Positions 13,740 to 40,967 of a stretch of 64,000 nt of DNA are shown here, piece after piece. The stretch's first letter is position 1, and each line of letters opens with the position of its first letter. The DNA comes from Burkholderiales bacterium. Its GTDB lineage: Bacteria > Pseudomonadota > Gammaproteobacteria > Burkholderiales > Burkholderiaceae_C. A program made the translations under genes and the position numbers. The notes beneath the pieces are model-generated. The model saw nothing but the letters and a program-made list of their open reading frames with translations. It searched no databases and was not told the origin of the DNA. The stretch is taken from assembly GCA_017307855.1 (NCBI GenBank), contig JAFKGD010000010.1:165578-229577 (forward strand). Direction: 5' to 3'.

Positions 13740-13803
13740 AGTATCGGCAAGCCGCAGGGTCGCCTCAACAGCCGGCCCTATTTGGGCGATAAGCACTGCT
13801 TAT
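13740..13803 (-). promoter_or_regulatory. LysR-type operator and promoter of the F420 operon (copy 1)
   Basis: Read on the minus strand: palindrome ATAAGCAGTGCTTAT (13789-13803, perfect 7-bp arms, T-N11-A), then 20 bp beginning CGCCCAAATA, -35 TTGAGG (13763-13768), 17 bp, -10 GATACT (13740-13745). The expected start is near 13733, about 50 bp before cofC, with the palindrome centre near -63. The same layout occurs at 28573-28636 and 30916-30979. The LysR gene ends 40 bp further upstream. Confidence 0.85.
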
Positions 13804-13843
13804 GCGTGTCCGGCCCCGCGGCGGCCGACGACCGGTGCGTCAG

Positions 13844-14788
13844 TCAGGCCACGCGCAGGCGTGGCGAGGCGTCGCCCTGGCCGCGCAGGGTGCGCAGCTT
13901 TTCCTGGTCGTCGGCCAGCTGCATGCGCATGCAGCGCAGCAGGGTCTTGCTGGCTTCGGACATCAGCACGCCCGGGCGGGACACCATCACGCACGAGAAC
14001 AGCACGTTTAGCGAGAACGGACGGATCACCAGGCCACGCTCGACGAAATCGATGGCGACGATGGGATTGACAAGCCCGATACCCACGCCGGCCAGCGCCA
14101 GCTCGCAGATGGTGCTGGCGTACGGGGTTTCGACCACGGGAGCGAGGCGGTGGTCGGTCGCCTGCAGCATCTTCTCCAGCCGCAGCCGCGAGGCATCCTC
14201 GGGGTTGAGCCCCACGTGCGGGTGCGACACCAGGTCGGCCGGCTCGATCACGCTCTTGCGCGCCAGCGCATGGCCGGGCGCCATCACGATCACGCCGTTC
14301 ATGTGCGCGAAGGCGTGGTGCTCCAGGCCCGAGGCCGGCGTCTCGTCGGCCATCAGTCCGAAGTCGTACTGGCCGGCCAGCACGTTCTGGTAGACGTCGC
14401 GCGAACTCATCACCTGCAGCGAGACCTTCATGTTGTCCAGTTGCGGCTGCATGCGCGCGATGGCGCGCGGCACGAAGCTGGTGCCATAGGCCGGATACGC
14501 GGCGATGCGCAGGCGGCCCATCACGCCCGAGCGCAGGCTGCGGATGCGGTGCTGGATCAGTTCGAGGCCCACGAAGCACTGGTTCACCTCGGCCAGCAGC
14601 GCCTCGGCTTCCTGCGTGGGCACCAGCCGTCCGCGCACGCGCTCGAACAGGCGGAACTCGGCGCTGGTCTCGAGCTTGCGGATGATCTGGCTCACTGCCG
14701 GTTGCGAGATGCCGAGCAGGGTGGCCGCCTTGCTGGTGCTGCCCGCCCCCATCACGGCCCGGAAGACTTCGATTTCGCGCAGCAGCAT
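13844..14788 (-). CDS. LysR-family regulator of the F420 locus
   Basis: A 314-residue LysR protein. The N-terminal winged HTH (MLLREIEVFRAVMGAGSTSK, then SQPAVSQIIRKLE) is followed by an effector-binding domain from about residue 90 (GRLRIAAYPAYGTSF, VSLQVMSSRDVYQNVLAGQYD). LysR proteins usually need a small-molecule co-inducer, often a pathway substrate. It lies directly upstream of the F420 operon on the same strand, and the T-N11-A palindromes at three promoters in this locus are the type LysR proteins bind. Its own upstream region (14789-15006) has no copy of that palindrome, so no autoregulation through it is visible. Confidence 0.92.
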   Translation of the reverse strand: MLLREIEVFRAVMGAGSTSKAATLLGISQPAVSQIIRKLETSAEFRLFERVRGRLVPTQEAEALLAEVNQCFVGLELIQHRIRSLRSGVMGRLRIAAYPAYGTSFVPRAIARMQPQLDNMKVSLQVMSSRDVYQNVLAGQYDFGLMADETPASGLEHHAFAHMNGVIVMAPGHALARKSVIEPADLVSHPHVGLNPEDASRLRLEKMLQATDHRLAPVVETPYASTICELALAGVGIGLVNPIVAIDFVERGLVIRPFSLNVLFSCVMVSRPGVLMSEASKTLLRCMRMQLADDQEKLRTLRGQGDASPRLRVA

Positions 14789-15006
14789 GGTGATATCGCC
14801 TGTGAGTTCGCCACCCTCGGCAGAACGCCTCGGGCTTCGAAGTCCAATCTAGCAACTTGCATGCCGCGGGCGCGAGCGGGCGAGTCCGGTTGCCGTCGTC
14901 GTCAAACGGAGTTAGGCACTTGTCTGGATGTGTACTTTTGGATTGATGCCTGCGCCCGCGAGGGTGGCAGGGACCGCCGGGTTCCGGCCGCGAAGCGCGT
15001 CGACGT

Positions 15007-16014
15007 TCAGTGCGGGGGCGTCGCGGTCCAGCGTGCCGCGCTCGCGTCATACACCGTGCGCCGGATGCGGTTGAGGTTGCCGAGTGGGCGGAACGCGTCC
15101 GGTGCATTCCATGGATTGAATGGCGTAGCGTCGACGGCCTGCGCTGTCGCCATTGCCGCAGGTGACCGCAGATCGCGCGTGGACAGCGTGAGCGTGGCAA
15201 TCTTCACGAACGGCACCGTGCTTTCGTCCCAACCCGTGCAGCCGTCTTCGATCGGCGTCATCACGTCATCGACGTATCGCTGGGCCGACAGCTGATAGAG
15301 CACGTCGCCCTGCAGCAGGGTCTGCGCGAAATCGGACGACAGATCCGGCGGTGCGTGCATTCCAGAGACCGGCGGCACGGCCGGATGCAGTTTGAGTCGC
15401 ACCGGCCCTGCATCGCCCCAGAGCAGGGCCCCCCGGCTCCAGAAGCTTTCGTCGGCAAGTCGCCGCGTTGCGCCCGTTGCCGACTTGAGGTTGCGCAGGA
15501 TGCGCAGCATCTCCGCCGGCCCGAAGGTGAACAGCAGCCGCGGCAGCAGCAGCGACCTGGCCCCCGACATGATCGATGCGAACTGGACGGACTGCACAGC
15601 GTCCCGCGCATGCGATACCGGGTAATTCGTCAGCAGGAGTTCATGCACGTTGCCGTCCGGCAGATGAAGCCGCAAGGCAGCACCCCGCATGTCAGGCTTC
15701 CTGCCGCCGTGGGGAATGCCACTGGCATTGGACAGGCGGACGGTGCAACGCAGACGCGCACCGGGCTGGAAATGATGCTGTCGCAGATCGGGCGGAACGT
15801 CGTCTGCCACCTCGAAGATCGCGTCATCGACGCCGGCCAGGATTTCCGCGTGCAGCGTGCGCAGTTTGCGGCCGTCGGAAACCTGGGCCTGGTTGCGCAG
15901 TTGCACGTCGCGCATGCGCATGACCAGTTCTTCGAAGAGCCGCGATTCCGCAGCTTCGGATCCATTCATCCATGTTTCGCGCCACTGCCGGGCCGGGGTG
16001 GTGGTGTCGCTCAT
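15007..16014 (-). CDS. Catalase-like heme protein
   Basis: A 335-residue catalase-superfamily protein. RTLHAEILAGVDDAIFEV matches the region of the catalase distal His (HAKG in true catalases). RGAALRLHLPDG, DVMTPIEDGCTGWDE and FNPWNAPDAFRPLGNLNRIR match later catalase blocks. It stops where true catalases would carry the proximal-Tyr helix (RLFSY...), which I cannot find, and is much shorter than the ~480-residue family norm. It may bind heme differently, act on lipid hydroperoxides, or be inactive as a catalase. GGAG precedes the start. It follows the GFA-like gene by 64 bp. Confidence 0.8.
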   Translation of the reverse strand: MSDTTTPARQWRETWMNGSEAAESRLFEELVMRMRDVQLRNQAQVSDGRKLRTLHAEILAGVDDAIFEVADDVPPDLRQHHFQPGARLRCTVRLSNASGIPHGGRKPDMRGAALRLHLPDGNVHELLLTNYPVSHARDAVQSVQFASIMSGARSLLLPRLLFTFGPAEMLRILRNLKSATGATRRLADESFWSRGALLWGDAGPVRLKLHPAVPPVSGMHAPPDLSSDFAQTLLQGDVLYQLSAQRYVDDVMTPIEDGCTGWDESTVPFVKIATLTLSTRDLRSPAAMATAQAVDATPFNPWNAPDAFRPLGNLNRIRRTVYDASAARWTATPPH

Positions 16015-16078
16015 CGTCGCTCCAGGTTCGTTGACTCGTGCCGCGTGTCTGGCACCGGCAGCCCTGCAAGTACCCGGC

Positions 16079-16486
16079 CTAGGGTTGGCCGTCGAAGGAG
16101 GGTGTGCCGGGAGGGAGTTTCACCCATGCCTGCCGGCGGCGCGTCCAGATCTCGCGCTGCGGGGCGCCGAGCTCGTGGCGCTGCGCCAGCGTGCCGGTGC
16201 GCAGCGAGTACGACGGCGGATCCTGCACCGCGCAGGCGTACAACTGCGTGCCGCAGACCTCGCAGAACGCGGTGAGACGCTGCCTCCCGCTGGCCGCTGT
16301 CTTGACGTAGGTGCGCGGCGTGCCTCTGACGAGCCGGAAGCCCGCCGCAGGCGCCGGGATGTTGGCCCGGAACGCCGAGCCGGATTGCACCTGGCAATCG
16401 ATGCAATGGCAGACGGTGACGGTGCCGGTCTCGACCTCGGCTTCGTACGCCACCGCGCCGCAGTGGCAAGCGCCTTCGACTTTCAT
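16079..16486 (-). CDS. GFA-domain (glutathione-dependent formaldehyde-activating-like) zinc protein
   Basis: A 135-residue zinc protein with the GFA Cys pattern: GACHCGAVAY near residue 5, VCHCIDCQVQSGSAF, and FCEVCGTQLY. The founding enzyme speeds S-hydroxymethylglutathione formation, though many relatives have unknown roles. The start at 16486 has a strong Shine-Dalgarno (AGGAG) upstream; a longer frame is unsupported. It lies downstream of the LLM gene (181-bp gap) and upstream of the catalase-like gene. If the local pathway releases formaldehyde this gene could help, but that is inference. Confidence 0.87.
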   Translation of the reverse strand: MKVEGACHCGAVAYEAEVETGTVTVCHCIDCQVQSGSAFRANIPAPAAGFRLVRGTPRTYVKTAASGRQRLTAFCEVCGTQLYACAVQDPPSYSLRTGTLAQRHELGAPQREIWTRRRQAWVKLPPGTPSFDGQP

Positions 16487-16667
16487 GGAGGATCTCCTGG
16501 TATTCGCGACCGCGCGTCGTCGGCGGCCGGATGGTGATGCTCCCACGATATCGCCGTTCGCGTCAGCCGTGATTGGCTGCCGAACCCATCGCGTGCATGC
16601 GCATGGAGGCACCACGCCGCTACTGGACGGCGAGGTGGCGGAGCGGGCCGGCCCCGCCGCCGCCCCG

Positions 16668-17675
16668 TCAGCGCACCACCGCCAGCGCCTGGCCGATCCC
16701 CGCCCGGTCGTCGATGCCGCCGATGGTGACTTCGTCCAGCCCCAGCGCCATGTATTCGCCGTAGCGCGCGCGCACCTGCTGCGGCGTGCCGGCGGCGGCG
16801 TGCGCGCGGATCACGTCGTCGGTGACCAGGCGTTCGAGCGTGGGCCAGTCCTCGTCGCGGAAGGCGTTCCACACGGCCGCCTGGTCCAGCCGCGTGCCCG
16901 AGAGTTCCACGTTCTTCGCATGGTGCGGACCCCGCAGGATGAAGCCCATGGTGCGGCGGATCCCGCCCAGCGCTTCGGGCTCGGTGGCGGCGATGCGCGT
17001 GTACACGATGGCCGTGCGGCTGCAGCGGCCCGGGGCGCTGCGATGGGCCTGGCCGCGATCGACCTGCTCCAGGCACCAGCGGATGAAGGGCGTGCCGGTG
17101 GCGGCCGAGATCAGCACGCCGTCGGCTTCGGCGCCGGCCAGCTCCAGCATCTGCGGGCCCGATGCGGCCAGCACGATGGGCACGCGGTCGGTGGGGTTGG
17201 GCAGGCGGCGGCCCTGCACCGTGAACACCTCGCCGGCGTGCGCCATGGTCTCGCCGGCCAGCAGCGCGCGGCAGACACGGATGGCCTCGCGCAGCGTGGC
17301 CAGCGGACGCGGCGCCTCGATGCCTGCGGCGGCCAGGTCGCCCGGCGCGCCCACGCCCAGGCACAGCACCACGCGGCCCGGAAACAGTTCGTCGAGCGCA
17401 GCCGCCGACATGGCGATGTACACGGGGTGCACCGTGAACGGGCTCATCGCCATCAGGGCGACCTTGATGCGCGAGGTGGCGGCCAGCGCGGCGTGCGCGG
17501 CGGTCACCGGGTCGCGCAGGAACAGGTGGCAGGCGACCCAGAGCGTGGAGGCGCCGCCGGCCTCGGCCGCCCGGGCCTGCTCGACGAATTCGGCCAGCGT
17601 GGCGCGGCCATCGGAAGCCACGCCGATCCGGCCGGCGGGGGAGAGAGCGTGAGCGTCAGGCGACGTCGAAACCAT
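16668..17675 (-). CDS. LLM-class (luciferase-like) oxidoreductase, probably F420-dependent, Mer-like
   Basis: A 335-residue TIM-barrel luciferase-like protein. Visible blocks are GRIGVASDGRATLAEFVEQA, SRIKVALMAMSPFTVHPVYI, ELFPGRVVLCLGVGAPGDL and VPIVLAASGPQMLELAGAEA, all typical of the Mer/F420 subgroup rather than FMN monooxygenases. It differs from the two LLM proteins at 20134 and 28649, which are close to each other. The ATG at 17675 overlaps the threonine-synthase-like gene by 20 bp. Dependence on F420 rather than FMN is inferred from the neighbouring F420 operon and the lack of a flavin reductase gene. Confidence 0.85.
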   Translation of the reverse strand: MVSTSPDAHALSPAGRIGVASDGRATLAEFVEQARAAEAGGASTLWVACHLFLRDPVTAAHAALAATSRIKVALMAMSPFTVHPVYIAMSAAALDELFPGRVVLCLGVGAPGDLAAAGIEAPRPLATLREAIRVCRALLAGETMAHAGEVFTVQGRRLPNPTDRVPIVLAASGPQMLELAGAEADGVLISAATGTPFIRWCLEQVDRGQAHRSAPGRCSRTAIVYTRIAATEPEALGGIRRTMGFILRGPHHAKNVELSGTRLDQAAVWNAFRDEDWPTLERLVTDDVIRAHAAAGTPQQVRARYGEYMALGLDEVTIGGIDDRAGIGQALAVVR

Positions 17676-18906
17676 AGTGTTCCTTGAGCGTGGCGAGCGC
17701 CGCGTCCAGCCGGGGCGCGGTACGCGGCACCGGTGGCAGATGGCGCTCGGCCACAGGGTTGTCCTTGAGGCCGGAGGCGGTGAGCAGCGACACCACGCGA
17801 TCATGCGGTGCGATGGTGCCGTCGGCGCGCAGCCGCTCGATGGCCGGCAACGTGGCCACTGAGGCGGGCTCGGCATACACGCCTTCGGCGGGGCCCAGGC
17901 GCGCGTGCCAGCGCAGGATGTCCTCGTCGGGCACGTGCACGGACACGCCGCGCGAGGCGCGCAGGGCCATCAGCCCCTGCAGCGTGCCCTGGGCGGCGGC
18001 GATCGACGCCGCCGACGAGGGTGCCGCCAGCGGGCGCACGGGCGGCACGTCGCCACCCTCGGCCATGGCGCCGGTGATCGAGCCCGACACCTCGGCGGCC
18101 AGCAGGCGCGGCATGCGCCGTGTCCAGCCCAGCGCGCGCAGGTCGTCGAAGCCCTTCCAGATACCGTAGAGCGAGTCGCCGTAGCAGGCCGGGACGGCGC
18201 ACCACTCGGGCACGTCCCAGTCCATCGCCTCGGCGATCTCGTAGGCGATGGTCTTGTAGCCCTCGATGCCCAGCGGACTGCTGCCGATCACGGGCCCGAA
18301 GTACGCCGTGGTGGGAAACCAGCCATGGCGCGCCACGGCCTCGACCAGCACGGTCCAGCGGTCGGCGCTGGTGGGCACCTTGAGCAGCAGCGCGCCATAG
18401 GCCTGCATCTGCGTGACCATGGCGCCGCCCGCGTTCTCGGTGGTCAGCACCACGCAGGGCAGCCCCGCGCGCGCGGCGTACGCGGCGGTGGCCGCACCCG
18501 CATTGCCCGACGAGCTGCAGGCGATCACGCGCGCGCCCATGCGGCGCGCCATCGTCACGGCCGCGCTGGCCAGCCGGTCCTTGAACGACCAGGTGGGGTT
18601 GCGGCTCTCGTCCTTGAACCACAGCGGGCCCAGGCCCAGGCGAGGCATGTCCAGCAGCGGCGTGAGCCCTTCGCCCAGGCTCACGGCCGCGTCGGCGGGC
18701 GCGTGCAGCAGGTCGGCGTAGCGCCACATCGAGTGCGGCCCGCGCGGCAGGCCCTCGGGCCGCAGCGCGGGCCAGGGCGCGTCGTAGCCCACCGTGAGGT
18801 TGGCCGCGACACCCTGCGCGGCACAGGCGTCGCAGCCGCGCACGTGGTCAGCCAGCGCGAACCGCTTGCCGCAGCGGATGCAGGTCAGGTGGGTCGACTC
18901 GCGCAT
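17656..18906 (-). CDS. Threonine-synthase-like PLP enzyme
   Basis: A 416-residue fold-type II PLP enzyme. The N-terminus has a zinc-ribbon-like CIRCGKRF and CDACAAQG, then SLGEGLTPLLDMPRLGL, the PLP lysine in NPTWSFKDRLAS, and CSSSGNAGAATAAYAARAGL as the phosphate-binding loop. The zinc-ribbon version of threonine synthase-like proteins includes both true threonine synthases and enzymes with other beta-replacement or elimination activities. Its place between livK (17-bp gap) and an LLM gene, far from threonine biosynthesis genes, suggests a catabolic lyase or a synthase of a pathway amino acid. Confidence 0.87.
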   Translation of the reverse strand: MRESTHLTCIRCGKRFALADHVRGCDACAAQGVAANLTVGYDAPWPALRPEGLPRGPHSMWRYADLLHAPADAAVSLGEGLTPLLDMPRLGLGPLWFKDESRNPTWSFKDRLASAAVTMARRMGARVIACSSSGNAGAATAAYAARAGLPCVVLTTENAGGAMVTQMQAYGALLLKVPTSADRWTVLVEAVARHGWFPTTAYFGPVIGSSPLGIEGYKTIAYEIAEAMDWDVPEWCAVPACYGDSLYGIWKGFDDLRALGWTRRMPRLLAAEVSGSITGAMAEGGDVPPVRPLAAPSSAASIAAAQGTLQGLMALRASRGVSVHVPDEDILRWHARLGPAEGVYAEPASVATLPAIERLRADGTIAPHDRVVSLLTASGLKDNPVAERHLPPVPRTAPRLDAALATLKEHYGFDVA

Positions 18907-18923
18907 GGGCCGGGCGATCGTGC

Positions 18924-20063
18924 TTACTTCAGCTCGTAGGTGTCGAGCACCGACACCTTGCGGTCCTTGACCTGGTTGATCACCACCAGGCGGCCGGCCT
19001 GGTTGTTGGCGTCGAAGGACAGCTTGCCGCCGTGCAGGCCGGTGATGCTGGCCTTGGCCATGGCATCGCGCACCTTGACCGGGTCGTCGCTCTGCGCATC
19101 GCGGATCGCGGCGGCGATCATGCGCACGCTGTCGTAGCCCGCCCAGGCCTGCAGGTTGGCGGGAATCTTGTGGCGCGCGAGGATGGTGGCGGCGAACTTC
19201 TTGTTGGCCGGGTTGTCGATCTCGGGCGCATACGTCCACGCCGAGATCGATCCGTTCAGGCCGCCGGCCTGGATCAGTTCCACCGTCTTGCCCGAGAGGT
19301 CAGCGCGGCCGGTGAAGGGAATGTTCACGCCCATCTGCATCGCGGTGCGGAAGAAGTTGAGCGAATCCGCGCCCAGCATGAACATGGCGATGGCGTCCGG
19401 GCGGCGCTGCGTCACGCGTGTGAGCAGCGGCGTGAAGTCCGGCGTCATCTGCGGCGCGAAATCGGTGGAGACGATGGTGAGCCCGGCCTTCTGTGCCAGC
19501 GGCGCGAAGGCGGCGGCGCCGCCACGGCCGAAGTCAGAATCCTCGCCCACCACGGCGATGGTCTTGAACACCTTCTTCTGGCCGAGGTACTCGGTCAGGC
19601 CCTGGGCCATGCGCAGGTCGTCCGGGCTCAGGCGGAACATGTAGGGGTTGCCGCCCGCGCCCGAGAGTTCGCCGATCTTCGGGCTCGACGAGACGGCCGT
19701 GACCATGGGGATCCTGGCCTCGGCAATGATCGGCATCATCGCCAGCGTGGCGCTGGAGCAGTGCGCGCCCACGATGGCGCTGACTTTGTCCTGCGCTAGC
19801 TTGCGCGCGGTGTTGGCGCCTTCGGTGGGGTTGCAGCGGTTGTCGGCGGTGATGACTTCGATCTTCTTGCCCAGCAGGCCGCCGGCCGCGTTGATCTCTT
19901 CGACCGCGAGGTCGACGCCCCACTTCTCCCATTCCGACGCGGCGGCGGCCGGGCCGGTGAAGCCGCTGGAGAAGCCGATGCGGATGGTGTTCTGCGCCTG
20001 GGCACCGAACGAGGCGAGGGCCATGGCGACAGCCACGGCGGATGCGGAACAGAAATACTTCAT
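18924..20063 (-). CDS. livK: Periplasmic substrate-binding protein of Liv-type ABC importer
   Basis: A 379-residue binding protein. A Sec signal peptide (MKYFCSASAVAVAMALASFG then AQAQ) is followed by NTIRIGFSSGFTGPAAAASE, the Leu/Ile/Val-binding family entry, LAVEEINAAGGLLGKKIEV, and DNRCNPTEGANTARKL. It collects a small solute in the periplasm and delivers it to LivHMGF, encoded upstream. AGGAG precedes the ATG. In this family the solute may be an amino acid, amide, urea or aromatic acid. It is separated from livF by hyuA, hyuB and an LLM gene, all on the same strand. Confidence 0.93.
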   Translation of the reverse strand: MKYFCSASAVAVAMALASFGAQAQNTIRIGFSSGFTGPAAAASEWEKWGVDLAVEEINAAGGLLGKKIEVITADNRCNPTEGANTARKLAQDKVSAIVGAHCSSATLAMMPIIAEARIPMVTAVSSSPKIGELSGAGGNPYMFRLSPDDLRMAQGLTEYLGQKKVFKTIAVVGEDSDFGRGGAAAFAPLAQKAGLTIVSTDFAPQMTPDFTPLLTRVTQRRPDAIAMFMLGADSLNFFRTAMQMGVNIPFTGRADLSGKTVELIQAGGLNGSISAWTYAPEIDNPANKKFAATILARHKIPANLQAWAGYDSVRMIAAAIRDAQSDDPVKVRDAMAKASITGLHGGKLSFDANNQAGRLVVINQVKDRKVSVLDTYELK

Positions 20064-20133
20064 GGAATGCTCCTGGGGTTGGGATGGAACGCGGGGACGG
20101 ACGGAGGGATGACGAGGCGAGGCCGCACGTGCC

Positions 20134-21141: not shown

Positions 21142-21186
21142 GTCGGTCTTTCTGGGGTGGTCGGGGTGGATCGGTGGATGGCCCTG

Positions 21187-22923: not shown

Positions 22924-25010
22924 TGCATGGCTCCCTTGCGCTCCATGACGATGTAGCCGAGCGCGTTGATGGTGGCGGTGAAGCCGGCGGTCACCAGCGT
23001 CGAGGTTTCTTCCTCGGCGATGATGGCCGGGCCGGGGATGGCGACGCCCGGCACGAGGCCGAAGCGCCAGTACAGCGGCACCGGCCGGCGCTCGCCGGTG
23101 GCGGCGTCGAACATCGGGCGTTCGCCGGCCGGCGTGGCCTGCTCGCGCGTGGCGGGCGTGGGCGGGCAGGGCTCGGGCGGCGGCGTGGCGGCGGCCATGC
23201 GCAGCGCCCAGCTGGTGATCTCCACCTGCATGCCGGGGATGGTGATGCCGAACACGCGTTCGTACTCGGCCTCGTAGGCCGCGCGCAACTGATCGGGCGC
23301 GGCTGCGCCGAAGGCGTCGCCCGGGATGCGTACCGTCAGATCGTGCCCCTGGCCGGCGTAGCGCATGTCGGCGGTCCAGACCTCGGTGAGGTCGGCCGTG
23401 GGCTCGCCCGCGCGGATGAAGTCGCGCGCCGTGCTGCGCATTTCCTCGCGCATGGCGTTGATGGCCGAGGGCTCGGCCAGTTGCGACAGCGCGGTGTAGC
23501 GCGTGCGCACCACTTCGAAGGCCACGGGCGCCAGCAGGAAGCCCACGGCCGAGCCGACGCCCGCACCGGTGGGCACCAGCACGCGCGCGATGTCCAGCTT
23601 CTCGGCCAGACGTGCGGCGTGCAGTGGCGCGGCGCCGCCGAAGGCGATCATGGTGCGGCCCGCCAGTTCCTTGCCGCGTTCCACGGCATGCACGCGCGCG
23701 GCGTTGGCCATGTTTTCCTCGACCACCTCGACGATGCCGTAGGCCGACTGCTCGGGCGTGAAGACCAGCCGCGCGCCGATCACGTCGTCCATGGCCTTCG
23801 CCGACTTCGACGGGTCGAGCGCAATGGTGCCGCCCGCGAAGCGCGCGGGGTCGATGGCACCCAGCACCATGTCGGCATCGGTCACCGTGGGCTGCGTGCC
23901 GCCGCGGTCGTAGCAGGCCGGTCCCGGCTCGGAAGCCGCGCTCTCGGGGCCGACCTGGATGCGCTTCATCGCATCGACGCTGGCGATGGAGCCGCCGCCG
24001 GCACCGATCTCCACCATTTCGACGACGGGGATGCGCAGCGGCAGGCCGCTGCCTTTCATGAAGCGGTAGGCGCGTGCCACTTCGAACGTGCGCGAGTACT
24101 GCGGCTCGCCGTCATCGATCAGGCATACCTTGGCCGTGGTGCCACCCATGTCGAACGACAGCACCTCGTCGTAGCCGCACTGCTGTGCCAGCTGCGAGGC
24201 CAGGATGGCGCCGCCCGCCGGGCCCGACTCCACCAGGCGGATGGGGAACATGCTCGCCGTCTCCAGCGTGGTCAGGCCGCCGGCCGAGGTGATGAGGAAC
24301 ACAGGGCAGGCGAAGCCCTGCGTGGCCAGCGCGGCCTTCAGGCGGCCCAGGTAGCCGGCCATCACCGGCTGCACGTAGGCATTGGCCACGGCGGTGGACC
24401 AGCGCTCGTACTCGCGGATCTCGGGGCTCACGTCGCTCGACAACGTGATCCACAGATGCGGCAGGCGCGCCTTGAGGATGTCGCGGGCGCGCTGCTCGTG
24501 CGCCGGCCACGCGTACGAATGCAGGAAGCCGATGGCCACGCTTTCGACCTTTTCGGCCTCGAGCTGGTCGGCGATGCGGCCGAGCGCGGCTTCGTCCAGC
24601 GGCTCGATCTCGTTGCCGCGCGCGTCCATGCGCTCGGGCACCGAGAGGCGCAGCGGGCGCGCCACCAGCGGCGGCGGCTTGTCCATGAGGATGTCGTACT
24701 GCTCGAAGCGGTTCTCGAACGCCATCTCGATGGAGTCGCGGAAGCCCTCGGTGCACACCAGCGCCGTCTTCGCGCCCTTGCGCTCGATGATGGCGTTGGT
24801 GGCCAGCGTGGTGCCGTGCACCAGCACGTCGATGTCGGCCGGCGTCAGCTGCGCCTTGGCCAGGATGGTGGCGATGCCGTTCAGCACGCCTTCCTCGGGC
24901 GCGCGGGGCGTGGTCAGCACCTTGGCGCTGACGCGGCGGCCGCCCACATCCAGGGCCAGGTCGGTGAAAGTGCCGCCGATGTCGACGGCGAGGCGAGCGC
25001 GTGCGCCCAT
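22920..25010 (-). CDS. hyuA: Hydantoinase/oxoprolinase family subunit A
   Basis: A 696-residue HyuA protein of normal length. It begins RARLAVDIGGTFTDLALDVG, the phosphate-1 motif of the ASKHA ATPase fold, then VHGTTLATNAIIERKGAKT. The second phosphate loop is in SFDMGGTTAKVCLIDDG and the metal/ATP region in ERGKELAGRTMIAFGGAAPL. This subunit binds ATP and activates the carbonyl of a lactam or imide ring (5-oxoproline, hydantoin, N-methylhydantoin). AGGAG lies before the ATG. It is cotranscribed with livF upstream (20-bp gap) and hyuB downstream. Confidence 0.93.
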   Translation of the reverse strand: MGARARLAVDIGGTFTDLALDVGGRRVSAKVLTTPRAPEEGVLNGIATILAKAQLTPADIDVLVHGTTLATNAIIERKGAKTALVCTEGFRDSIEMAFENRFEQYDILMDKPPPLVARPLRLSVPERMDARGNEIEPLDEAALGRIADQLEAEKVESVAIGFLHSYAWPAHEQRARDILKARLPHLWITLSSDVSPEIREYERWSTAVANAYVQPVMAGYLGRLKAALATQGFACPVFLITSAGGLTTLETASMFPIRLVESGPAGGAILASQLAQQCGYDEVLSFDMGGTTAKVCLIDDGEPQYSRTFEVARAYRFMKGSGLPLRIPVVEMVEIGAGGGSIASVDAMKRIQVGPESAASEPGPACYDRGGTQPTVTDADMVLGAIDPARFAGGTIALDPSKSAKAMDDVIGARLVFTPEQSAYGIVEVVEENMANAARVHAVERGKELAGRTMIAFGGAAPLHAARLAEKLDIARVLVPTGAGVGSAVGFLLAPVAFEVVRTRYTALSQLAEPSAINAMREEMRSTARDFIRAGEPTADLTEVWTADMRYAGQGHDLTVRIPGDAFGAAAPDQLRAAYEAEYERVFGITIPGMQVEITSWALRMAAATPPPEPCPPTPATREQATPAGERPMFDAATGERRPVPLYWRFGLVPGVAIPGPAIIAEEETSTLVTAGFTATINALGYIVMERKGAMQ

Positions 25011-25030
25011 GGGTGTTCTCTCCTCGGGAT

Positions 25031-25766
25031 TCAGGATGCTTCGGTGGGTGCGGCGGCTGCCGCCTCGGAGGCGGTGACGCCCAGGTAGGCCTGGCTCACG
25101 CGCGGATCGTTCATCACCTCGTCGGCCGGGCCCTCCATGAACTTGCGGCCGAGCTCCAGCACGATGGCGGTGTCGGACATGCGCAGCGCGCCATGCACGT
25201 TCTGCTCGACCATGAGCACTGTCACGCCGGTATCGGCCACGCGGCGCGCCATCTCGAACACGTCCTGCTGCATGCGCGGCGAGAGGCCCAGCGAAGGCTC
25301 GTCGAGCAGCAGCAGGCGCGGCTTGAGCAGCATCACCATGGCGGTTTCCAGCATTTGCTGCTCGCCGCCGGACATGTTGCCGGCCAGCATGCCCAGCTTG
25401 TCCTTGAGGAAGGGAAACAGCTCCAGCACCGGCGCGATCGCGGCGTCGTGCTGGCGGCGCGGCAGGGTGTAGCAGGCGATCTTGAGGTTCTCGGCCACCG
25501 ACAGCGTGGCGAAGTTGCAGCGTCCCTGCGGCACGAAGCCGATGCCGAGCTTCAGGCGCTCCCAGGGTGGCAGGCGCTCGATGGCGCGGCCGGCGAACAC
25601 GATCTGCCCGGAGAACCAGCGATTGGAGCCGTAGATGGCGCGCATCAGCGTGGACTTGCCCGCGCCGTTGCCGCCGATCAGCGTGGTGACCGTGCCCGTG
25701 GCGATGCGCGCGGAGAAATTGCGCACGATGGGCAGGCCGTCGTAGCCGGCCGTCAGGTCGACGATC

Positions 25767-25783
<17 letters not shown>
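25031..25783 (-). CDS. livF: ABC transporter ATP-binding protein LivF (TTG start preferred)
   Basis: A 250-residue ATPase with Walker A GGNGAGKST, signature MSGGEQQML, Walker B LLLLDEPSLGL, and the usual LivF N-terminus LEIVDLTAGYDGLPIVRNFS. I prefer TTG at 25783 because GGAGG lies 6 bp upstream and the homology begins here. An ATG at 25813 would add ten residues, overlap livG by 47 bp, and has no Shine-Dalgarno. It energises transport together with LivG. Confidence 0.9.
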
Positions 25784-26632
<849 letters not shown>

Positions 26633-26633
<1 letters not shown>

Positions 26634-27583
26634 CACGCGTCCTCCGTCAGGCTCTGGCGCAGGCGCGCGATGCGGCGGTCGCGCAGCCAGCCGGCCACGC
26701 CCTGGGGCAGCACCAGCACGGCCACCACGAGGATGGCGCCGTAGATCACCATGCGCAGTTCGTTGGAGAAGCGCAGCGCCTCGGGCAGCACCGACATCAC
26801 CATGCCCGCCACCACCACGCCCCAGAAGCTGCCGGCACCGCCGATGATGACCATGATGAGCCACGCCTGGGCGTAGTACATGTCGAACATCGTCGGGTCG
26901 ACGATCTTCAGATAGAACACCTGGATGCCCCCGGCCATGCCGGTGAGTGCCGCGGCCACGGCGAAGGCCAGCAGCTTGTAGGGCGAGGGCGGAATGCCGT
27001 GCGCCAGCACCAGCGGCTCGTTCTGCCGGATGGCGCGCAACGTGCGGCCGATGCGTGAACTGCCCAGCGCGTACAGCACGCCCAGCGCGAACAGCATGAA
27101 GGCCAGCGCCAGCCAGTAGATCGAGCGGATGCCGGCCAGCGGCTGGCCGAACAGCTCGGGTGCGGGCAGGCCGGGCAGGCCCATGGGGCCGCGCGTGAGG
27201 TCCACCCAGTCGCGCGAGACCATGAAGGCCAGCAGCGAGAACGACAGCGTGACGATCACGAACGACTGGCGCTGCAGCCGCAATGCGGCCCAGCCCACCA
27301 CCAGCGCGAGCACGGTGCACAGGGCGCCGGCCGCGGCCAGCCCCGTCCAGAACGAACCGCCGGCATCCATCACGATGAGCGCGGTGCAGTAGCCGCCGAT
27401 GCCCCAGAACGCGAGCTGCGCGAACGAGAGCAGGCCGGCGTAGCCGTACACCAGGTTAAGGCTGGCGGCGGCCACGGTGAACGTGAGGGCGGTGACGCCC
27501 GCGCCGATCACGTAGTCCGACGCGGCCAGCGGCGCCACGGCCAGCAGCACGGCGGCGGCGAGGGCGAATGCGAGTTCCTTCAT
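26633..27583 (-). CDS. livM: ABC transporter permease LivM
   Basis: A 316-residue inner-membrane permease with about nine or ten hydrophobic segments, starting MKELAFALAAAVLLAVAPLA. Family marks are LSFAQLAFWGIGGYCTALIV in the first part and GRTLRAIRQNEPLVLAHGI in the cytoplasmic EAA-like loop, then GGAGSFWGVVVAGMVMSVLP. It forms the channel with LivH. The livH stop is 4 bp upstream of its start, and its own stop overlaps livG, so the transporter genes are coupled. Confidence 0.93.
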
Positions 27584-27587
27584 CGCG

Positions 27588-28475
27588 TCAGCCCACCCGC
27601 ATGTTGCGCTGGCCGAACAGGCCGTGCGGACGCACCATCAGGATCACGATCATGATGATGAAGCCGGCGGTTTCCTGCCAGATGATGTTGAAGAAGCCGC
27701 CGACCCAGCTCTCGACGATGCCGATCAGCAGGCCCGCGACGATGGCGCCACCCACGCTGCCCAGGCCGCCGATCACGACCAGCGCGAAGGCCTTGAAGAT
27801 GAGGAACTGGCCCATGATGGGTTGCACCAGGTGCACCGGCGCGAGCGCCGCGCCGGCCAGGCCGGCCAGCACGGTGGCGATGACGACGGCGTTGCGCGCC
27901 ACGGTGCGTGGCTTGATGCCGACCATGAGCGCGGCTTCGCGGTTGATGGCCACGGCGCGCATCGCGCGGCCCAGTTGCGTGCGGTAGAGCACCAGCCACA
28001 GCGACACGAAGGCGATCAGCGCGATGCCGCAGGCCGCCACGCGCGTCCAGGTGATGCGGATGCTGCCGATCTGCAGGCCCTGGTAGCCCAGCTCGGTGGT
28101 GACCATGCGTGGCGTGGAGGAAAACAGGTACTGCATGCCGTAGAGCAGCACCATCGAGATGCCGGTGGTGATGAGGATGCTGCTCTCGAAATCCTTCTCG
28201 CGCAGCCGCACGATGAAGCCGTCGTAGAGCAGCACGCCCAGCACGGCGCTGGCGGCCAGCGTGACCAGGGTGGCGGGGATGTAGCGGCCATCGAACGCGC
28301 CGAGCGCGAAGCTCATGACGAAGGCGCCGACCATCAGCACCTCGCCGTGTGCGAAATTGATGATGTCCAGCACGCCGAAGATCAGCGAGAGGCCTACGGC
28401 GATGAGGGCGTAGATGAGCCCCAGCATCAGCCCGTTGAGGGCCAGCTGCAGCAGGTAGGTCGGGTCGATCTGCAT
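27588..28475 (-). CDS. livH: ABC transporter permease LivH
   Basis: A 295-residue permease with about eight hydrophobic segments. It has LALNGLMLGLIYALIAVGLS then LIFGVLDIINFAHGEVLMVG, classic LivH, and GRAMRAVAINREAALMVGIK in the cytoplasmic loop. The ATG at 28475 (MQIDPTYLLQ) is preferred over an ATG at 28580: the latter sits inside the predicted promoter core (28573-28601) and precedes the expected transcript start. It is the first gene of the long transporter-hyuAB-LLM-livK unit. Confidence 0.92.
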   Translation of the reverse strand: MQIDPTYLLQLALNGLMLGLIYALIAVGLSLIFGVLDIINFAHGEVLMVGAFVMSFALGAFDGRYIPATLVTLAASAVLGVLLYDGFIVRLREKDFESSILITTGISMVLLYGMQYLFSSTPRMVTTELGYQGLQIGSIRITWTRVAACGIALIAFVSLWLVLYRTQLGRAMRAVAINREAALMVGIKPRTVARNAVVIATVLAGLAGAALAPVHLVQPIMGQFLIFKAFALVVIGGLGSVGGAIVAGLLIGIVESWVGGFFNIIWQETAGFIIMIVILMVRPHGLFGQRNMRVG

Positions 28476-28572
28476 GGCGTCAGCTGCGGGGTGCGGGCGC
28501 GTCGCGCCGGAGGGAACGGGTACTGCCGGGATGATCCATGGGGGGGATGAAGTGCTCGCTACTGTGTTCTGC

Positions 28573-28636
28573 AGTGTCATGGAACGGCTCGTGCGCGGCT
28601 ACCTGCAGGTCTACTTGAACGAGAAGCGCTGCTTAT
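28573..28636 (-). promoter_or_regulatory. LysR-type operator and promoter of the liv-hyu operon (copy 3)
   Basis: On the minus strand: imperfect palindrome ATAAGCAGCGCTTCT (28622-28636), then 20 bp beginning CGTTCAAGTA, a very poor -35 TAGCCG (28596-28601), 17 bp, and -10 GACACT (28573-28578). The layout and spacings equal those of copies 1 and 2. The predicted start near 28566 leaves a leader of about 90 nt to livH. The weak -35 suggests activator dependence. Confidence 0.8.
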
Positions 28637-28648
28637 ATGTGCGGTGCG

Positions 28649-29686
28649 TCACGCCAGCGGCGCAGGGGCCGGGTGCCGGTAGTCAGGCACACGGGCCATC
28701 ACCTCCTGGGCGAACCACTGGATCTGCTCGTCCATCTCGCTCACCGTGTCGGTGGGAAACATGAGCGCCGAGCAGTGGTCCACGCCGATGGCGCGCAGCC
28801 TGTCGATCTTCTCGAGCACGACCTCGGGCGTGCCGACGAGGTTGGCGACGACCTGCTGGCCGAGGTCGCGGCCGGTGTAGGCCAGCGACTTGCGGTGCGC
28901 GGCCAGCCCGCTGGCCATATGACGCTTCTCGGCCTCTTCCATCGTGCGGCCCAGCGTCACCGAGAACTGCGGCGCGATCTCGATGCCGGACGGATCGCGG
29001 CCGATGGCCTCGGCTTCGCGCTTCAGCGTTGCGATGCGTTCCTGCATCTCGTTGAGCGGCCGCCAGGCCGGCAGCCAGCCCTGGCCGTAGCGGACGGCCC
29101 GCCGCACGGCTTCCATGTTGTGGCCACCGACATACAGCGGGAACGGCTGGGCGATGCTCTTGGGCGCCATCTCGATGCCGTGGAAGGAGTAGTACTTTCC
29201 GTCCATGCTGGCGCTGTTTCCGGTGAAGAGCTTCTCCAGTGCCACCAGGCCCTCGTCCATCATCTCGCCGCGAACGGCGCCAGCCACGCGCTTGCCGCCC
29301 CAGGCAAGAAACTCCTCGCGGTAGGCGCCCAGGCCCACGGCCATCACGAAGCGGCCGCCGCTCATCCGGTCGAGCGTGATGGCCTGCTTGGCCAGGTAGA
29401 CCGGGTCGCGCATGGGCAGCACGCACAGCGCGGTGCCCAGCTTCAGGCGCGTGGTGGCGGCGCTGATGGCCGACAGCACCATCATCGGTTCGTAGAAGTT
29501 GGGTGTCTGGCCCGGATGGAGCTGGCGCACGTAGTCCTGGGTGGTGATGTGGTCGTTGCCCCAGACGGAGTCGTAGCCGAGCCTCTCGCACATCACGGCC
29601 TGGCGGATGAAGTCTTGCGGGCCGCAGAAGCCGATGGGATACATCACGCCCTCGAAGCCGGTGGAGAGGCAGACACTGAATTTCAT
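28649..29686 (-). CDS. LLM-class oxidoreductase, probably F420-dependent (paralogue B)
   Basis: A 345-residue luciferase-like TIM-barrel protein beginning MKFSVCLSTGFEGVMYPIGF. It shares YDSVWGNDHITTQDYVRQL, TRLKLGTALCVLPMRDPVYL and GGRFVMAVGLGAYREEFLAW with the protein at 20134. FPLYVGGHNMEAVRRAVRYG follows. It lies 14 bp downstream of the PLP lyase gene, and its stop is about 12 bp before the operator of the next unit. The pair of related LLM enzymes may act on successive intermediates. F420 dependence is inferred, not shown. Confidence 0.87.
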   Translation of the reverse strand: MKFSVCLSTGFEGVMYPIGFCGPQDFIRQAVMCERLGYDSVWGNDHITTQDYVRQLHPGQTPNFYEPMMVLSAISAATTRLKLGTALCVLPMRDPVYLAKQAITLDRMSGGRFVMAVGLGAYREEFLAWGGKRVAGAVRGEMMDEGLVALEKLFTGNSASMDGKYYSFHGIEMAPKSIAQPFPLYVGGHNMEAVRRAVRYGQGWLPAWRPLNEMQERIATLKREAEAIGRDPSGIEIAPQFSVTLGRTMEEAEKRHMASGLAAHRKSLAYTGRDLGQQVVANLVGTPEVVLEKIDRLRAIGVDHCSALMFPTDTVSEMDEQIQWFAQEVMARVPDYRHPAPAPLA

Positions 29687-29700
29687 GGAGGCTCCGGCAG

Positions 29701-30882
29701 TCAGGCCACGCACGCGCGCAGGGCGGCGAAGGCGCCGGCCAGGTCGTCGAGCAGGGCCTGCAACTCCTCCAGTCCCACCGACAGTCGCACCAGCGCCGAC
29801 TGCACGCACGGATGGGTGCGCGACTGCTGCTCGCTCGCCGGGTAGAGCGCGGCGAGGCTGTGCACGCCGCCCCAGCTCGCGCCGATGGAGAACACGCGCA
29901 GCGCGCCGAAGAAGGCCTCGGTCTGGGCCTCGCTCCAGTCGCGCGGCTGGAAGGTCAGCACGCAGCCGGCGCCATGGAAGTCCCGCTGCCACAGCGCGTG
30001 GCCGGGCGAGCCGGGCAGCGGCGGGTAGAGAACGGATCGCACCTCGGGCTGCGCGGCCAGCAGCGCGGCCACCTGCAGCGCGGCGACGGCCTGGGCTTGC
30101 AGGCGCACCTTCAGCGTCTCAAGCCCGCGCAGGACGAGGAAACAGTCTTCGGGGCTGACCGACTGGCCCAGCGTGCTCTGGGCCGAGCGCAGCTTTTCGT
30201 ACAGCCCCCGGTCGTTCACGGCCACGGTGCCCAGCAGCACGTCGGAATGACCGCCGAACATCTTGGAGGCGGCCTCCACGCTGATGTCCACGCCCAGCGC
30301 CAGCGGGCGCAGGCCCAGCGGCGAGGCCCAGGTGTTGTCGATGAGCGTCGTGACGCCGTGGCGGCGCGCGGCGGCCACGGCGGCGGGAATGTCCAGCATC
30401 TCCATGGTGATGGAGCCCGGCGATTCGAGGCACAGCAGGCGCGTGGCGGGACGCATCAGCGCTTCCAGCGCTGCGGATTCGATGGCGGGCGGATAGAACT
30501 CGACCTCGATGCCCCAGCCGGCCATCCACTCGCGGCCGAACGATTTGAGCGGGCCGTAGGCCGCATCGGAGATGAGCACGTGATCGCCCGCGCGCAGCAC
30601 GGTCATCAGCGCCAGGCACAGGGCGGCCTGGCCCGAGGGCAGCACCACGCAGTGGGCCGCGCCTTCGAGCGCGGCCACGCGGCGTTCGAGCTCGCGGCTG
30701 GTGGGCGTGCCGGTGATGCCATAGCTGTAGCCGTCGTACAGGCGCTCCCGGCGCCGCGTGAAGTCACCGATGCTGTCGAACAGAACGGTGGACGCGCGCC
30801 AGACGGCGGGCGAGAGACTGCGAAAGGGCGTCTCGGCGCGGTCCGGCGTGGCGGCGACGCTCTTGTGGGAATCCAGGCTCAT
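29701..30882 (-). CDS. Cystathionine-beta/gamma-lyase-like PLP enzyme
   Basis: A 393-residue fold-type I enzyme of the Cys/Met-metabolism PLP family. YGYSITG-like SYGITGTPTSRELERRVAAL replaces the usual YGR.GNPT block; HCVVLPSGQAALCLALMTVL, TTLIDNTWASPLGLRPLALG and the lysine motif EAASKMFGGHSDVLLG follow. Members eliminate thiols from cystathionine-like amino acids or replace gamma-substituents. The start at 30882 (MSLDSHKSV) is chosen because a longer frame from 30972 runs through the promoter and operator. First gene of a two-gene unit with an LLM oxidoreductase. Confidence 0.9.
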   Translation of the reverse strand: MSLDSHKSVAATPDRAETPFRSLSPAVWRASTVLFDSIGDFTRRRERLYDGYSYGITGTPTSRELERRVAALEGAAHCVVLPSGQAALCLALMTVLRAGDHVLISDAAYGPLKSFGREWMAGWGIEVEFYPPAIESAALEALMRPATRLLCLESPGSITMEMLDIPAAVAAARRHGVTTLIDNTWASPLGLRPLALGVDISVEAASKMFGGHSDVLLGTVAVNDRGLYEKLRSAQSTLGQSVSPEDCFLVLRGLETLKVRLQAQAVAALQVAALLAAQPEVRSVLYPPLPGSPGHALWQRDFHGAGCVLTFQPRDWSEAQTEAFFGALRVFSIGASWGGVHSLAALYPASEQQSRTHPCVQSALVRLSVGLEELQALLDDLAGAFAALRACVA

Positions 30883-30915
30883 CGATGTTTTCCGGGCAGG
30901 TAGGGGGCCCGGAAA

Positions 30916-30979
30916 AGTATCGAGCGAAGGCGCCGCGCTCCCAACAAGCTGAGGTAGTTGCGCGATAAGCACGGCTTAT
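30916..30979 (-). promoter_or_regulatory. LysR-type operator and promoter of the PLP lyase-LLM unit (copy 2)
   Basis: On the minus strand: palindrome ATAAGCCGTGCTTAT (30965-30979, 6-bp perfect arms), 20 bp beginning CGCGCAACTA, -35 TTGGGA (30939-30944), 17 bp, -10 GATACT (30916-30921). The start is expected near 30909, about 27 nt before the coding start. The symmetric site could also serve the divergent pxpA gene; a weak match TTCGTG (31001-31006)/TATGCG (31023-31028) with 16-bp spacing lies on the plus strand, so this is only a possibility. Confidence 0.85.
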
Positions 30980-31908: not shown

Positions 31909-31955
31909 TGCGCTTCGCCATCACCGACGTGCCGGATTCGGCCTACCAGGTGTGA
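31908..31955 (+). CDS. 15-codon mini-ORF coupling pxpA to pxpBC
   Basis: An ATG overlapping the pxpA stop (TGATG) opens a 15-codon frame ([15 protein letters not shown]) that ends in GTGTGA, so its stop overlaps the GTG start of pxpBC by four bases. It may be a coupling peptide or the relic of a pxpB start lost by a frameshift. Nothing shows it is made as a stable product. Confidence 0.3.
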   Translation: MRFAITDVPDSAYQV

Positions 31956-37347: not shown

Positions 37348-37359
37348 GGCGCGGCTTCC

Positions 37360-39975: not shown

Positions 39976-40058
39976 TGAAGGGAGATTGTCACATCATGGC
40001 GTGACTGGCCAGCGGGGGGGCTTGCTCGTCCCGTTCATTTGGCGCGCGCTGACTGACG

Positions 40059-40871: not shown

Positions 40872-40967
40872 GAGAAGCTGCTCAGGAAATGGTCTACAGA
40901 CTGTATGTGCCCCCGCCGGTCTGACGTTGCGCCAAGGCGAACCGGCGCCCCGTGTCGCGAAGCTGCG

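What the first reader, a model, noticed from the sequence alone, without database searches (positions are those of the whole stretch)
13740..30979. Three identical LysR-type operator-promoter modules tie F420 synthesis, transport and catabolic genes into one regulon
Upstream of cofC (13740-13803), livH (28573-28636) and the PLP lyase (30916-30979) the same module occurs in the same orientation: ATAAGC-N3-GCTTAT (copy at livH has one degenerate arm), exactly 20 bp (each with CAA at the same offset: CGCCCAAATA, CGCGCAACTA, CGTTCAAGTA), a poor -35 (TTGAGG, TTGGGA, TAGCCG), exactly 17 bp, then GATACT, GATACT or GACACT. The palindrome fits T-N11-A and its centre falls near -63, the usual LysR activator site. 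A LysR gene (13844-14788) lies next to the first copy. Three-way conservation of sequence and spacing over about 64 bp, several kb apart, is hard to explain by chance.
Basis: partly seen in the sequence, partly recalled or inferred. Interest (0 to 1): 0.9.

Follow-up and report, generated by a model that had tools for sequence, protein, structure and literature searches.

The report
LysR regulon that includes F420 synthesis
One LysR-type regulator appears to switch on, through three copies of the same DNA switch found nowhere else in this genome, both a nutrient-breakdown pathway and the genes that make the rare cofactor F420 which that pathway probably uses.

Summary
In the 5.0-Mb genome, ATAAGC-N3-GCTTAT with up to one mismatch occurs at only three places, all here; the 25-bp extended pattern with up to three mismatches gives the same three. 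They precede cofC, livH and a PLP lyase with identical spacing to a -10 element.

Relatives of the neighbouring LysR gene say what it is. In 13 of 18 rows of its tree clade, the window included, an ATAA-N7-TTAT palindrome lies beside lysR, mostly between lysR and a divergent homologue of the same PLP lyase. A matrix from relatives alone ranks the three window sites 1-3 of about 128,000 positions, mainly through the palindrome. The operator-to--10 distance is conserved too.

The site-1 operon holds complete F420 synthesis plus an NADPH:F420 reductase. In 399 sampled family genomes, the LysR (13) and CofG (7) coincide only here.

So an older LysR/PLP-lyase/transporter regulon seems to have annexed F420 synthesis and a hydantoinase pathway. 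The sites are not identical: livH's is degenerate. The window's lysR lacks an own-promoter site. Inducer and substrate are unknown; nothing is tested at the bench.

The parts
13789..13803 (-). Site 1 operator palindrome ATAAGCAGTGCTTAT, 40 bp after the lysR stop codon, upstream of cofC
13740..13803 (-). Site 1 module: palindrome, CAAATA box, -35 TTGAGG (13768-13763), 17 bp, -10 GATACT (13745-13740)
28622..28636 (-). Site 2 operator palindrome ATAAGCAGCGCTTCT (one mismatch), upstream of livH
28573..28636 (-). Site 2 module: palindrome, CAAGTA box, weak -35 TAGCCG, 17 bp, -10 GACACT; livH then starts at ATG 28475
30965..30979 (-). Site 3 operator palindrome ATAAGCCGTGCTTAT, between the PLP lyase (-) and pxpA (+)
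30916..30979 (-). Site 3 module: palindrome, CAACTA box, -35 TTGGGA, 17 bp, -10 GATACT
13844..14788 (-). LysR-type regulator, the proposed activator (HTH_1 + LysR_substrate)
13029..13682 (-). cofC, first gene after site 1 (start ATG 13682)
10622..12994 (-). cofGH (FbiC-type FO synthase)
9945..10604 (-). fno/npdG, NADPH-dependent F420 reductase (5' end approximate)
9120..9878 (-). cofE, F420-0:glutamate ligase
8182..9114 (-). cofD (5' end approximate)
27588..28475 (-). livH-like permease, first gene after site 2
26633..27583 (-). livM-like permease
25767..26633 (-). livG-like ATPase; N-terminus carries a hexanucleotide repeat. Assigned from position and sequence, no profile search run on it
25031..25813 (-). 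livF-like ATPase (5' end approximate)
22920..25010 (-). hydantoinase/oxoprolinase A subunit
21187..22923 (-). hydantoinase/oxoprolinase B subunit
20134..21141 (-). LLM2, luciferase-like F420-dependent oxidoreductase (TIGR03619, above cut-off)
18924..20063 (-). livK-like binding protein
17656..18920 (-). threonine-synthase-like PALP enzyme (5' end approximate)
16668..17650 (-). LLM3, Mer-like luciferase-family oxidoreductase (5' end approximate)
16079..16615 (-). GFA (formaldehyde-activating-enzyme family) protein
29701..30882 (-). PLP lyase (Cys/Met metabolism; cystathionine beta-lyase-like), first gene after site 3
28649..29690 (-). LLM1, luciferase-like F420-dependent oxidoreductase (TIGR03619), second gene after site 3 (5' end approximate)

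Best explanation
The three modules are operator-promoters of the LysR-type regulator encoded at 13844-14788. A LysR tetramer anchors on the ATAAGC-N3-GCTTAT palindrome centred near -63. With an inducer it contacts the downstream CAANTA/-35 region and recruits RNA polymerase to weak promoters with a GAYACT -10. This co-activates three minus-strand operons: PLP lyase-LLM1 (site 3); livHMGF-hyuAB-LLM2-livK-PALP-LLM3-GFA (site 2); and cofC-cofGH-fno-cofE-cofD (site 1). In relatives the same LysR clade sits beside a divergent PLP lyase and, where annotated, amino-acid ABC transporter genes, so this genome's version is an older catabolic regulon extended to an F420-using catabolic cluster and to F420 synthesis itself. 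The inducer is probably an amino-acid-like compound imported by the Liv transporter. Shown: sites, spacing, uniqueness in the genome, cross-genus linkage of LysR, palindrome and PLP lyase. Inferred: binding, activation, operon extents, direction of evolution, inducer, substrate.
For: Genome-wide uniqueness of the three sites. The 25-mer with up to 2 mismatches occurs, of 299 family genomes, only in the own and in one other, at G214:C1:185768-185792, 19 bp after the stop of that genome's 54%-identical LysR homologue. ATAA-N7-TTAT beside lysR in 13 of 18 clade rows (12 exact, 1 with one mismatch; the window is one of the 13): abutting the lysR start (gap -2 to 4 bp) or 19-73 bp after its stop. 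Of the 12 rows other than the window, 10 have a PLP lyase 39-62% identical to the window's near by. Matrix from 14 relatives' sites, no window sequence: s1, s3, s2 rank 1-3. A -10-like hexamer (A at 2, T at 6, at least 3 of 6 to TATAAT) at exactly offset 59 in 7 of 13 relatives' sites and at offset 58 in 3 more, against a mean of 0.46 per other offset. The second operator copy in G214 precedes a solute-binding-protein gene, so more than one target is native to the clade. F420 set above NCBIfam cut-offs for cofC, cofG, cofH, cofE, cofD and fno. In G271, which is not among the LysR hits and shows no LysR match in the fetched stretches, LLM1 (70%), the F420 genes and the PLP lyase (62%) are also clustered: an independent link between the target groups.
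Against: No experiment. In the window lysR has no palindrome at its own start and is co-directional, not divergent. Five of 18 clade rows (the PALP-linked subclade) have no site with up to one mismatch, and of 5 sister rows none has an exact one (two have one mismatch). ATAA-N7-TTAT is a generic LysR-family form: 2 of 9 other LysR genes of this genome have one upstream. In some relatives the last bases of the palindrome overlap the lysR start codon (gap -2), which by itself constrains them. Site 2 is weak: broken arm, -35 TAGCCG. The downstream-only matrices are poor: positions 16-64 from all 14 relatives rank s1 40th, s3 61st, s2 814th; positions 26-64 rank s3 2,419th, s1 2,955th, s2 7,384th. 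The strict sigma-70 scan finds no promoter in either region scanned. The sites aligned were chosen because they carry a palindrome, so only their downstream conservation is independent evidence.
Confidence: 0.82

Rival explanations
1. The palindromes are operators, but of another LysR-type regulator (one of the 80 other LysR-like matches in the genome) and the adjacency of this lysR is incidental.
For: ATAA-N7-TTAT occurs upstream of 2 of 9 other LysR genes of the genome; the window's lysR lacks a site at its own promoter.
Against: The GC-inner palindrome is confined to this locus and ATAA-N7-TTAT sites accompany homologues of this LysR in other genera. The next best LysR in the genome is only 34% identical.
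Confidence: 0.07
2. Only sites 1 and 3 are functional; site 2 is a decayed or weak site and the liv-hyu operon is expressed from read-through of the PLP lyase-LLM1 operon or another promoter.
For: Site 2 has a mismatched arm, poor -35, GACACT -10; it ranks 814, 3,885, 4,409 and 7,384 in four downstream-only tests. LLM1 ends 12 bp before the palindrome, so read-through is possible.
Against: Spacing is exact and the all-three identity over positions 16-64 includes site 2 (19 of 49); the full matrix still ranks it third; the TTCT arm recurs at a relative's PLP-lyase site (L132).
Confidence: 0.2
3. The palindromes are repressor sites (LysR as pure repressor) rather than activator anchor sites.
For: LysR-type proteins can repress (recalled); in relatives the site abuts the lysR start codon, fitting autorepression of lysR there.
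Against: Centre at -63 with weak -35 elements and conserved spacing to the -10 fits the geometry reported for OccR (IR1 at -64 from the start site) (PMC5002191, passages).
Confidence: 0.08
4. A small dispersed repeat or a duplicated promoter block, without regulatory meaning.
For: Three copies in 17 kb, same orientation.
Against: Sequence outside the module is at background (8-10 of 36 identical pairwise at positions 65-100); no other copy in the genome; conserved spacing in other genera.
Confidence: 0.02

Closest known systems
OccR of Agrobacterium (octopine catabolism, LysR type)
   Same: LysR type; high-affinity inverted repeat at -64 from the target start with another at -33 (PMC5002191, passages). 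Its effector domain (5vvh) is one of only two solved-structure matches to the window LysR at E 1e-10.
   Different: Only 54.7 bits, to the effector domain alone; occR and occQ share one intergenic region (same passages); here three operons, a co-directional lysR and a cofactor pathway as a target.
LysR / cystathionine-beta-lyase-like loci of Burkholderia arboris, Caballeronia, Variovorax plasmids, Paraburkholderia phenoliruptrix
   Same: Homologous LysR (48-59%), PLP lyase (53-62%), ATAA-N7-TTAT palindrome at the lysR start.
   Different: lysR divergent from the PLP lyase with one site; amino-acid type ABC transporter genes where annotated; no cofC, cofGH, cofD, LLM or hydantoinase match by tblastn in the fetched stretches (cofE and fno were not in that query set).
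G271 F420 / PLP lyase / molybdenum hydroxylase cluster (same family)
   Same: LLM1 70%, CofGH 62%, Fno 64%, PLP lyase 62%, LLM3 45%.
   Different: No match to this LysR and no exact ATAA-N7-TTAT in the fetched stretches, about 60 kb; TctC-type receptor, PntAB, molybdenum hydroxylase genes.
Mycofactocin regulator MftR
   Same: A ligand-responsive regulator controlling synthesis of a redox cofactor (PMC8728441; title and start of abstract seen in the listing).
   Different: Other cofactor and, from memory, another regulator family (TetR).

Membership tests
LysR-type regulator and its operator | N-terminal HTH_1 plus LysR_substrate domain | tested here: met
   HTH_1 62.8 bits, LysR_substrate 127 bits, both above cut-off
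LysR-type regulator and its operator | T-N11-A interrupted palindrome as anchor site (definition recalled) | tested here: met
   met at s1 and s3; at s2 the A is replaced by C (arm TTCT), so it is not met there
LysR-type regulator and its operator | Anchor site centred near -65 of an activated promoter | tested here: inconclusive
   -63 relative to the start inferred from the -10; no start site mapped
LysR-type regulator and its operator | lysR divergent from target, shared site, autoregulation (common, not obligatory; recalled) | tested here: not met
   window lysR is co-directional with cofC and has no palindrome at its own start; the layout is met in relatives
LysR-type regulator and its operator | Inducer binding and inducer-dependent activation | not testable with these tools
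   needs protein and transcript work
Complete F420 biosynthesis operon | cofC, cofG+H, cofD, cofE above curated cut-offs | tested here: met
   CofC 127.8 (105), CofG 480 (213), CofH 531.7 (374), CofD 299.5 (257), CofE 243.3 (181) bits
Complete F420 biosynthesis operon | Single transcript from site 1 | not tested
   all genes on the same strand; gaps unresolved where 5' ends are approximate; no RNA data
F420-dependent luciferase-like oxidoreductases (TIGR03619) | Score above subfamily cut-off | tested here: met
   LLM1 193.4 and LLM2 191.0 against 166.9 bits; LLM3 is below the cut-offs of all families listed
OccR | Close sequence relation to OccR | tested here: not met
   only 54.7 bits, to the effector domain

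The most novel reading that the evidence does not exclude
Made-to-order cofactor: a single catabolic LysR regulator induces F420 synthesis, F420 reduction, substrate uptake and the F420-dependent enzymes together, so this bacterium makes F420 only while eating one particular (probably amino-acid-derived, cyclic amide-containing) compound. It would be a dedicated transcriptional regulator of F420 biosynthesis, created when an existing LysR/PLP-lyase regulon gained operator copies in front of an F420 catabolic cluster.
Probability: 0.55. Interest if true: 0.68.

Novelty: new variant of a known kind. Interest (0 to 1): 0.56.

Why it matters
What F420 is for in most Proteobacteria, and how its synthesis is controlled, is poorly known. 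[quoted passage not shown] None of the titles and abstract starts listed by my ten paper searches (capped lists) describes a dedicated F420-biosynthesis regulator. If this regulon is real, the inducer of one LysR protein names the substrate, and with it one physiological role of F420 in this lineage. It is also a clean case of regulon expansion, with a likely older state still visible in relatives.

Tried and rejected
Dispersed repeat or promoter-block duplication: rejected, flanks at background. Terminator hairpins: the scan found one terminator-like stem in each region, neither at a palindrome. A fourth site in the window at 40830 (+), matrix rank 4: rejected on inspection, no palindrome. 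A divergent promoter towards pxpA from site 3 (matrix rank 5, 30965 +): much of the score is the palindrome read backwards; not claimed. CofGH relatives as a route to the regulator: the 80 loci kept of 386 (best 57% identity) gave no LysR match at E 1e-10 and no palindrome with one mismatch. Class-wide search for the LysR at E 1e-80 found only the own genome in 369; the order-wide one added two in 399. The inducer could not be deduced from PDB matches. The own genome has five further, less similar PLP-lyase-family matches (38-43%), not pursued. Paper searches for F420 with hydantoinase and LysR, or with NpdR and picrate terms, returned none. Not run: structure prediction, fold search.

Rows dropped or chosen by me: L130 (near-identical to L125) left out of the tree; L127 (near-identical to L126) left out; of 71 plasmid records with a match, 40 were listed and 8 fetched; sites picked because they hold a palindrome (<=2 mismatches, or ATAA-N7-TTAT for L117, L129, L133) and oriented by me towards the PLP lyase, the divergent gene or the downstream gene.


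Full report
OBSERVATION. Counting from the first base of the palindrome as position 1: palindrome 1-15, a CGNNCAANTA box at 16-25, -35 hexamer at 36-41 (s1 TTGAGG, s2 TAGCCG, s3 TTGGGA), 17-bp spacer, -10 at 59-64 (GATACT, GACACT, GATACT). Palindrome centres lie 63 bp upstream of the start inferred from the -10. In-frame starts after the modules are ATG 13682 (cofC), ATG 28475 (livH) and ATG 30882 (PLP lyase), with leaders of about 51, 91 and 27 nt. The listed livH ATG at 28580 overlaps the -10 and is not the likely start; the match to the LivH profile extrapolates to about residue 36 of that frame, which is ATG 28475.

CHANCE. In the window the palindrome with up to 2 mismatches has exactly these 3 matches (expected 0.28; 0 of 100 shuffles reach 3). 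In the whole genome (4,991,047 bases) exact matches are s1 and s3, one mismatch adds only s2, and the 25-mer ATAAGCNNNGCTTATCGNNCAANTA with up to 3 mismatches gives the same three places, with no match of the reversed control. Over positions 16-64, 19 of 49 columns are identical in all three; no random window triple (0 of 100,000) and no shuffle (0 of 100,000) reaches this. For positions 26-64, register zero is the best of 289 (12 columns, next 9; 4 of 100,000 shuffles reach 12). Without the -10, the stretch 26-58 is only mildly alike (7 of 33; 2,714 of 100,000 shuffles). Flanks beyond the -10 are at background (8-10 of 36 pairwise), so these look like separately maintained sites, not recent copies of one DNA block.

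GENES. Site 3: PLP lyase (Cys/Met metabolism family, nearest solved structure cystathionine beta-lyase), then LLM1. Site 2: livH, livM, livG, livF, hydantoinase/oxoprolinase A and B, LLM2, a livK-like binding protein, a threonine-synthase-like PALP enzyme, LLM3, a GFA protein, and a 335-aa protein with only a sub-threshold catalase match. Site 1: cofC, cofGH, an NADPH:F420 reductase, cofE and cofD, i.e. F420 synthesis and reduction. LLM1 and LLM2 exceed the cut-off of the TIGR03619 F420-dependent family. On the plus strand beyond site 3 lie pxpA, pxpBC and a biotin carboxylase. Operon extents are inferred from strand and spacing only.

WHO BINDS. The LysR at 13844-14788 has no close paralogue in the genome (next best 34%). 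Two independent searches met at the same spot. Of 299 family genomes scanned for the 25-mer with up to 2 mismatches, one other than the own matched (G214:C1:185768-185792). Of 399 family genomes searched for the LysR at E 1e-60, 13 including the own matched, among them G214 with a 54% homologue at C1:185842-186759. The G214 site lies 19 bp after that lysR's stop codon, the layout of site 1 (40 bp). I looked at 24 loci with LysR matches, own included. An exact ATAA-N7-TTAT abuts the lysR start (gap -2 to 4 bp) in 11 loci (L110, L111, L115, L117, L124-L127, L129, L130, L133), one with a mismatch in L132; exact sites follow the lysR stop in the window (40 bp), L110 (19 bp) and L128 (73 bp). In the tree of 32 rows the window LysR falls in a clade of 18 (support 100/98, its place inside unresolved); 13 of the 18, the window included, have such a site (12 exact, 1 with one mismatch). 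The five without are one nested, PALP-linked subclade; in the five-row sister clade none is exact and two have one mismatch. Against over-reading: 2 of 9 other LysR genes of the own genome also have ATAA-N7-TTAT upstream, since this is a general LysR-type form; and where the palindrome overlaps the lysR start codon the last bases are constrained anyway.

Of the 12 site-bearing rows other than the window, 10 have a divergent PLP lyase 39-62% identical to the window's near by; L117 and L128 show none in the fetched stretch. In the three annotated records with this layout the PLP lyase is followed by amino-acid ABC transporter genes, and in G214 the second site precedes a solute-binding-protein gene.

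HOLD-OUT TESTS. A matrix over positions 1-64 from 14 relatives' sites and no window sequence ranks s1, s3 and s2 first, second and third of all window positions on both strands (27.1, 25.0, 13.4 bits; next 10.5). Most of this is the palindrome. Downstream-only tests are mixed (same call): positions 16-64, all relatives: s1 40th, s3 61st, s2 814th; positions 26-64, all relatives: s3 2,419th, s1 2,955th, s2 7,384th; positions 16-64, six sites of close relatives: s1 1st, s3 13th, s2 3,885th; positions 26-64, only the PLP-lyase sites of L110 and L111: s1 1st, s3 24th, s2 4,409th; positions 49-64, the same two: s1 16th, s3 223rd, s2 1,593rd. So the downstream part is shared with near relatives for s1 and s3, and not demonstrably for s2. 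The position of the -10 is conserved more widely: 7 of 13 relatives' sites have a -10-like hexamer at exactly offset 59 and 3 more at 58, against a mean of 0.46 at other offsets.

MECHANISM. The architecture matches the layout described for OccR (inverted repeat of greatest affinity at -64, another at -33 from the start; PMC5002191, passages); the same passage puts the PcaQ site 65.5 bp upstream of its target gene. The CAA of the box (20-22) and the TTG of the -35 (36-38) are spaced symmetrically around position 29 in s1 and s3 (read by eye), so the -35 may be part of a second, inducer-dependent LysR subsite; this is my inference and does not hold in s2. With weak -35 elements the promoters should depend on LysR.

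HOW IT AROSE. F420 synthesis is rare here: CofG in 7 of 399 family genomes including the own; the LysR in 13 of 399; both only in the own genome. In G271, another CofG-positive family member, LLM1 (70%), cofGH, fno, cofE, cofD, cofC, PntAB, the PLP lyase (62%) and a LLM3 homologue (45%) are clustered with molybdenum hydroxylase genes, without a match to this LysR or an exact ATAA-N7-TTAT in the fetched stretches. F420 genes beside HyuAB, PxpA or LLM genes also recur among the 80 CofGH loci. The simplest reading: PLP lyase and F420-dependent LLM chemistry belong to one pathway, and in this genome the LysR that elsewhere sits with the PLP lyase and a transporter came to control all of it. Which event came first is not shown.

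LITERATURE. F420 with hydantoinase and LysR: none. NpdR with F420 and picrate terms: none. No listed title or abstract start describes a dedicated transcriptional regulator of F420 biosynthesis; most lists were capped and subscription papers are mostly outside this library, so this is weak evidence of absence. Papers seen: PMC5002191 and PMC8498797 as passages only; the rest as listings.

VERDICT. The finding stands and is stronger than its author could know. Confidence that the sites are operators of this LysR is about 0.82; that all three, including the weak livH site, function is lower. LysR regulons are ordinary; putting F420 synthesis under a catabolic LysR is the unusual part.

Noticed in passing
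L147/L148 (G271:C1 about 2,887,000-2,909,600): A related F420 cluster in another family member: M24 peptidase, GTP cyclohydrolase II, TctC receptor, LLM1 (70%), cofGH-fno-cofE-cofD-cofC, PntAB transhydrogenase, PLP lyase (62%), AstE/AspA-type deacylase, molybdenum hydroxylase, XdhC. Suggests F420 use in heterocycle breakdown.
   Followed up: partly
L027, L029, L031, L043, L054, L070, L072; L038, L064, L066, L089: F420 synthesis genes near hydantoinase A/B (with an LLM gene in L027, L043, L054, L070, L072; none listed for L029, L031), or near PxpA (with PxpBC in L038, L064), in Alphaproteobacteria, a Gammaproteobacterium and Cupriavidus: a recurrent F420/cyclic-amide association.
   Followed up: no
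window about 26555-26605: Run of GACGGC-like hexanucleotide repeats inside the N-terminal coding region of livG.
   Followed up: no
window 36409-44483: Two transglutaminase-like proteins (one fused to DUF2126) and a circularly permuted ATP-grasp plus Alpha-E protein: apparently a separate amide-ligase-like cluster.
   Followed up: no
window 31144-35358 (+): pxpA, pxpBC and a biotin carboxylase start divergently from site 3; whether the site-3 palindrome also serves them is open.
   Followed up: partly
L112, L100, L113, L114, L116: A LysR subclade next to a threonine-synthase-like PALP gene (31-36% to the window's PALP) without the palindrome; the window carries a PALP gene in the site-2 operon.
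   Followed up: no
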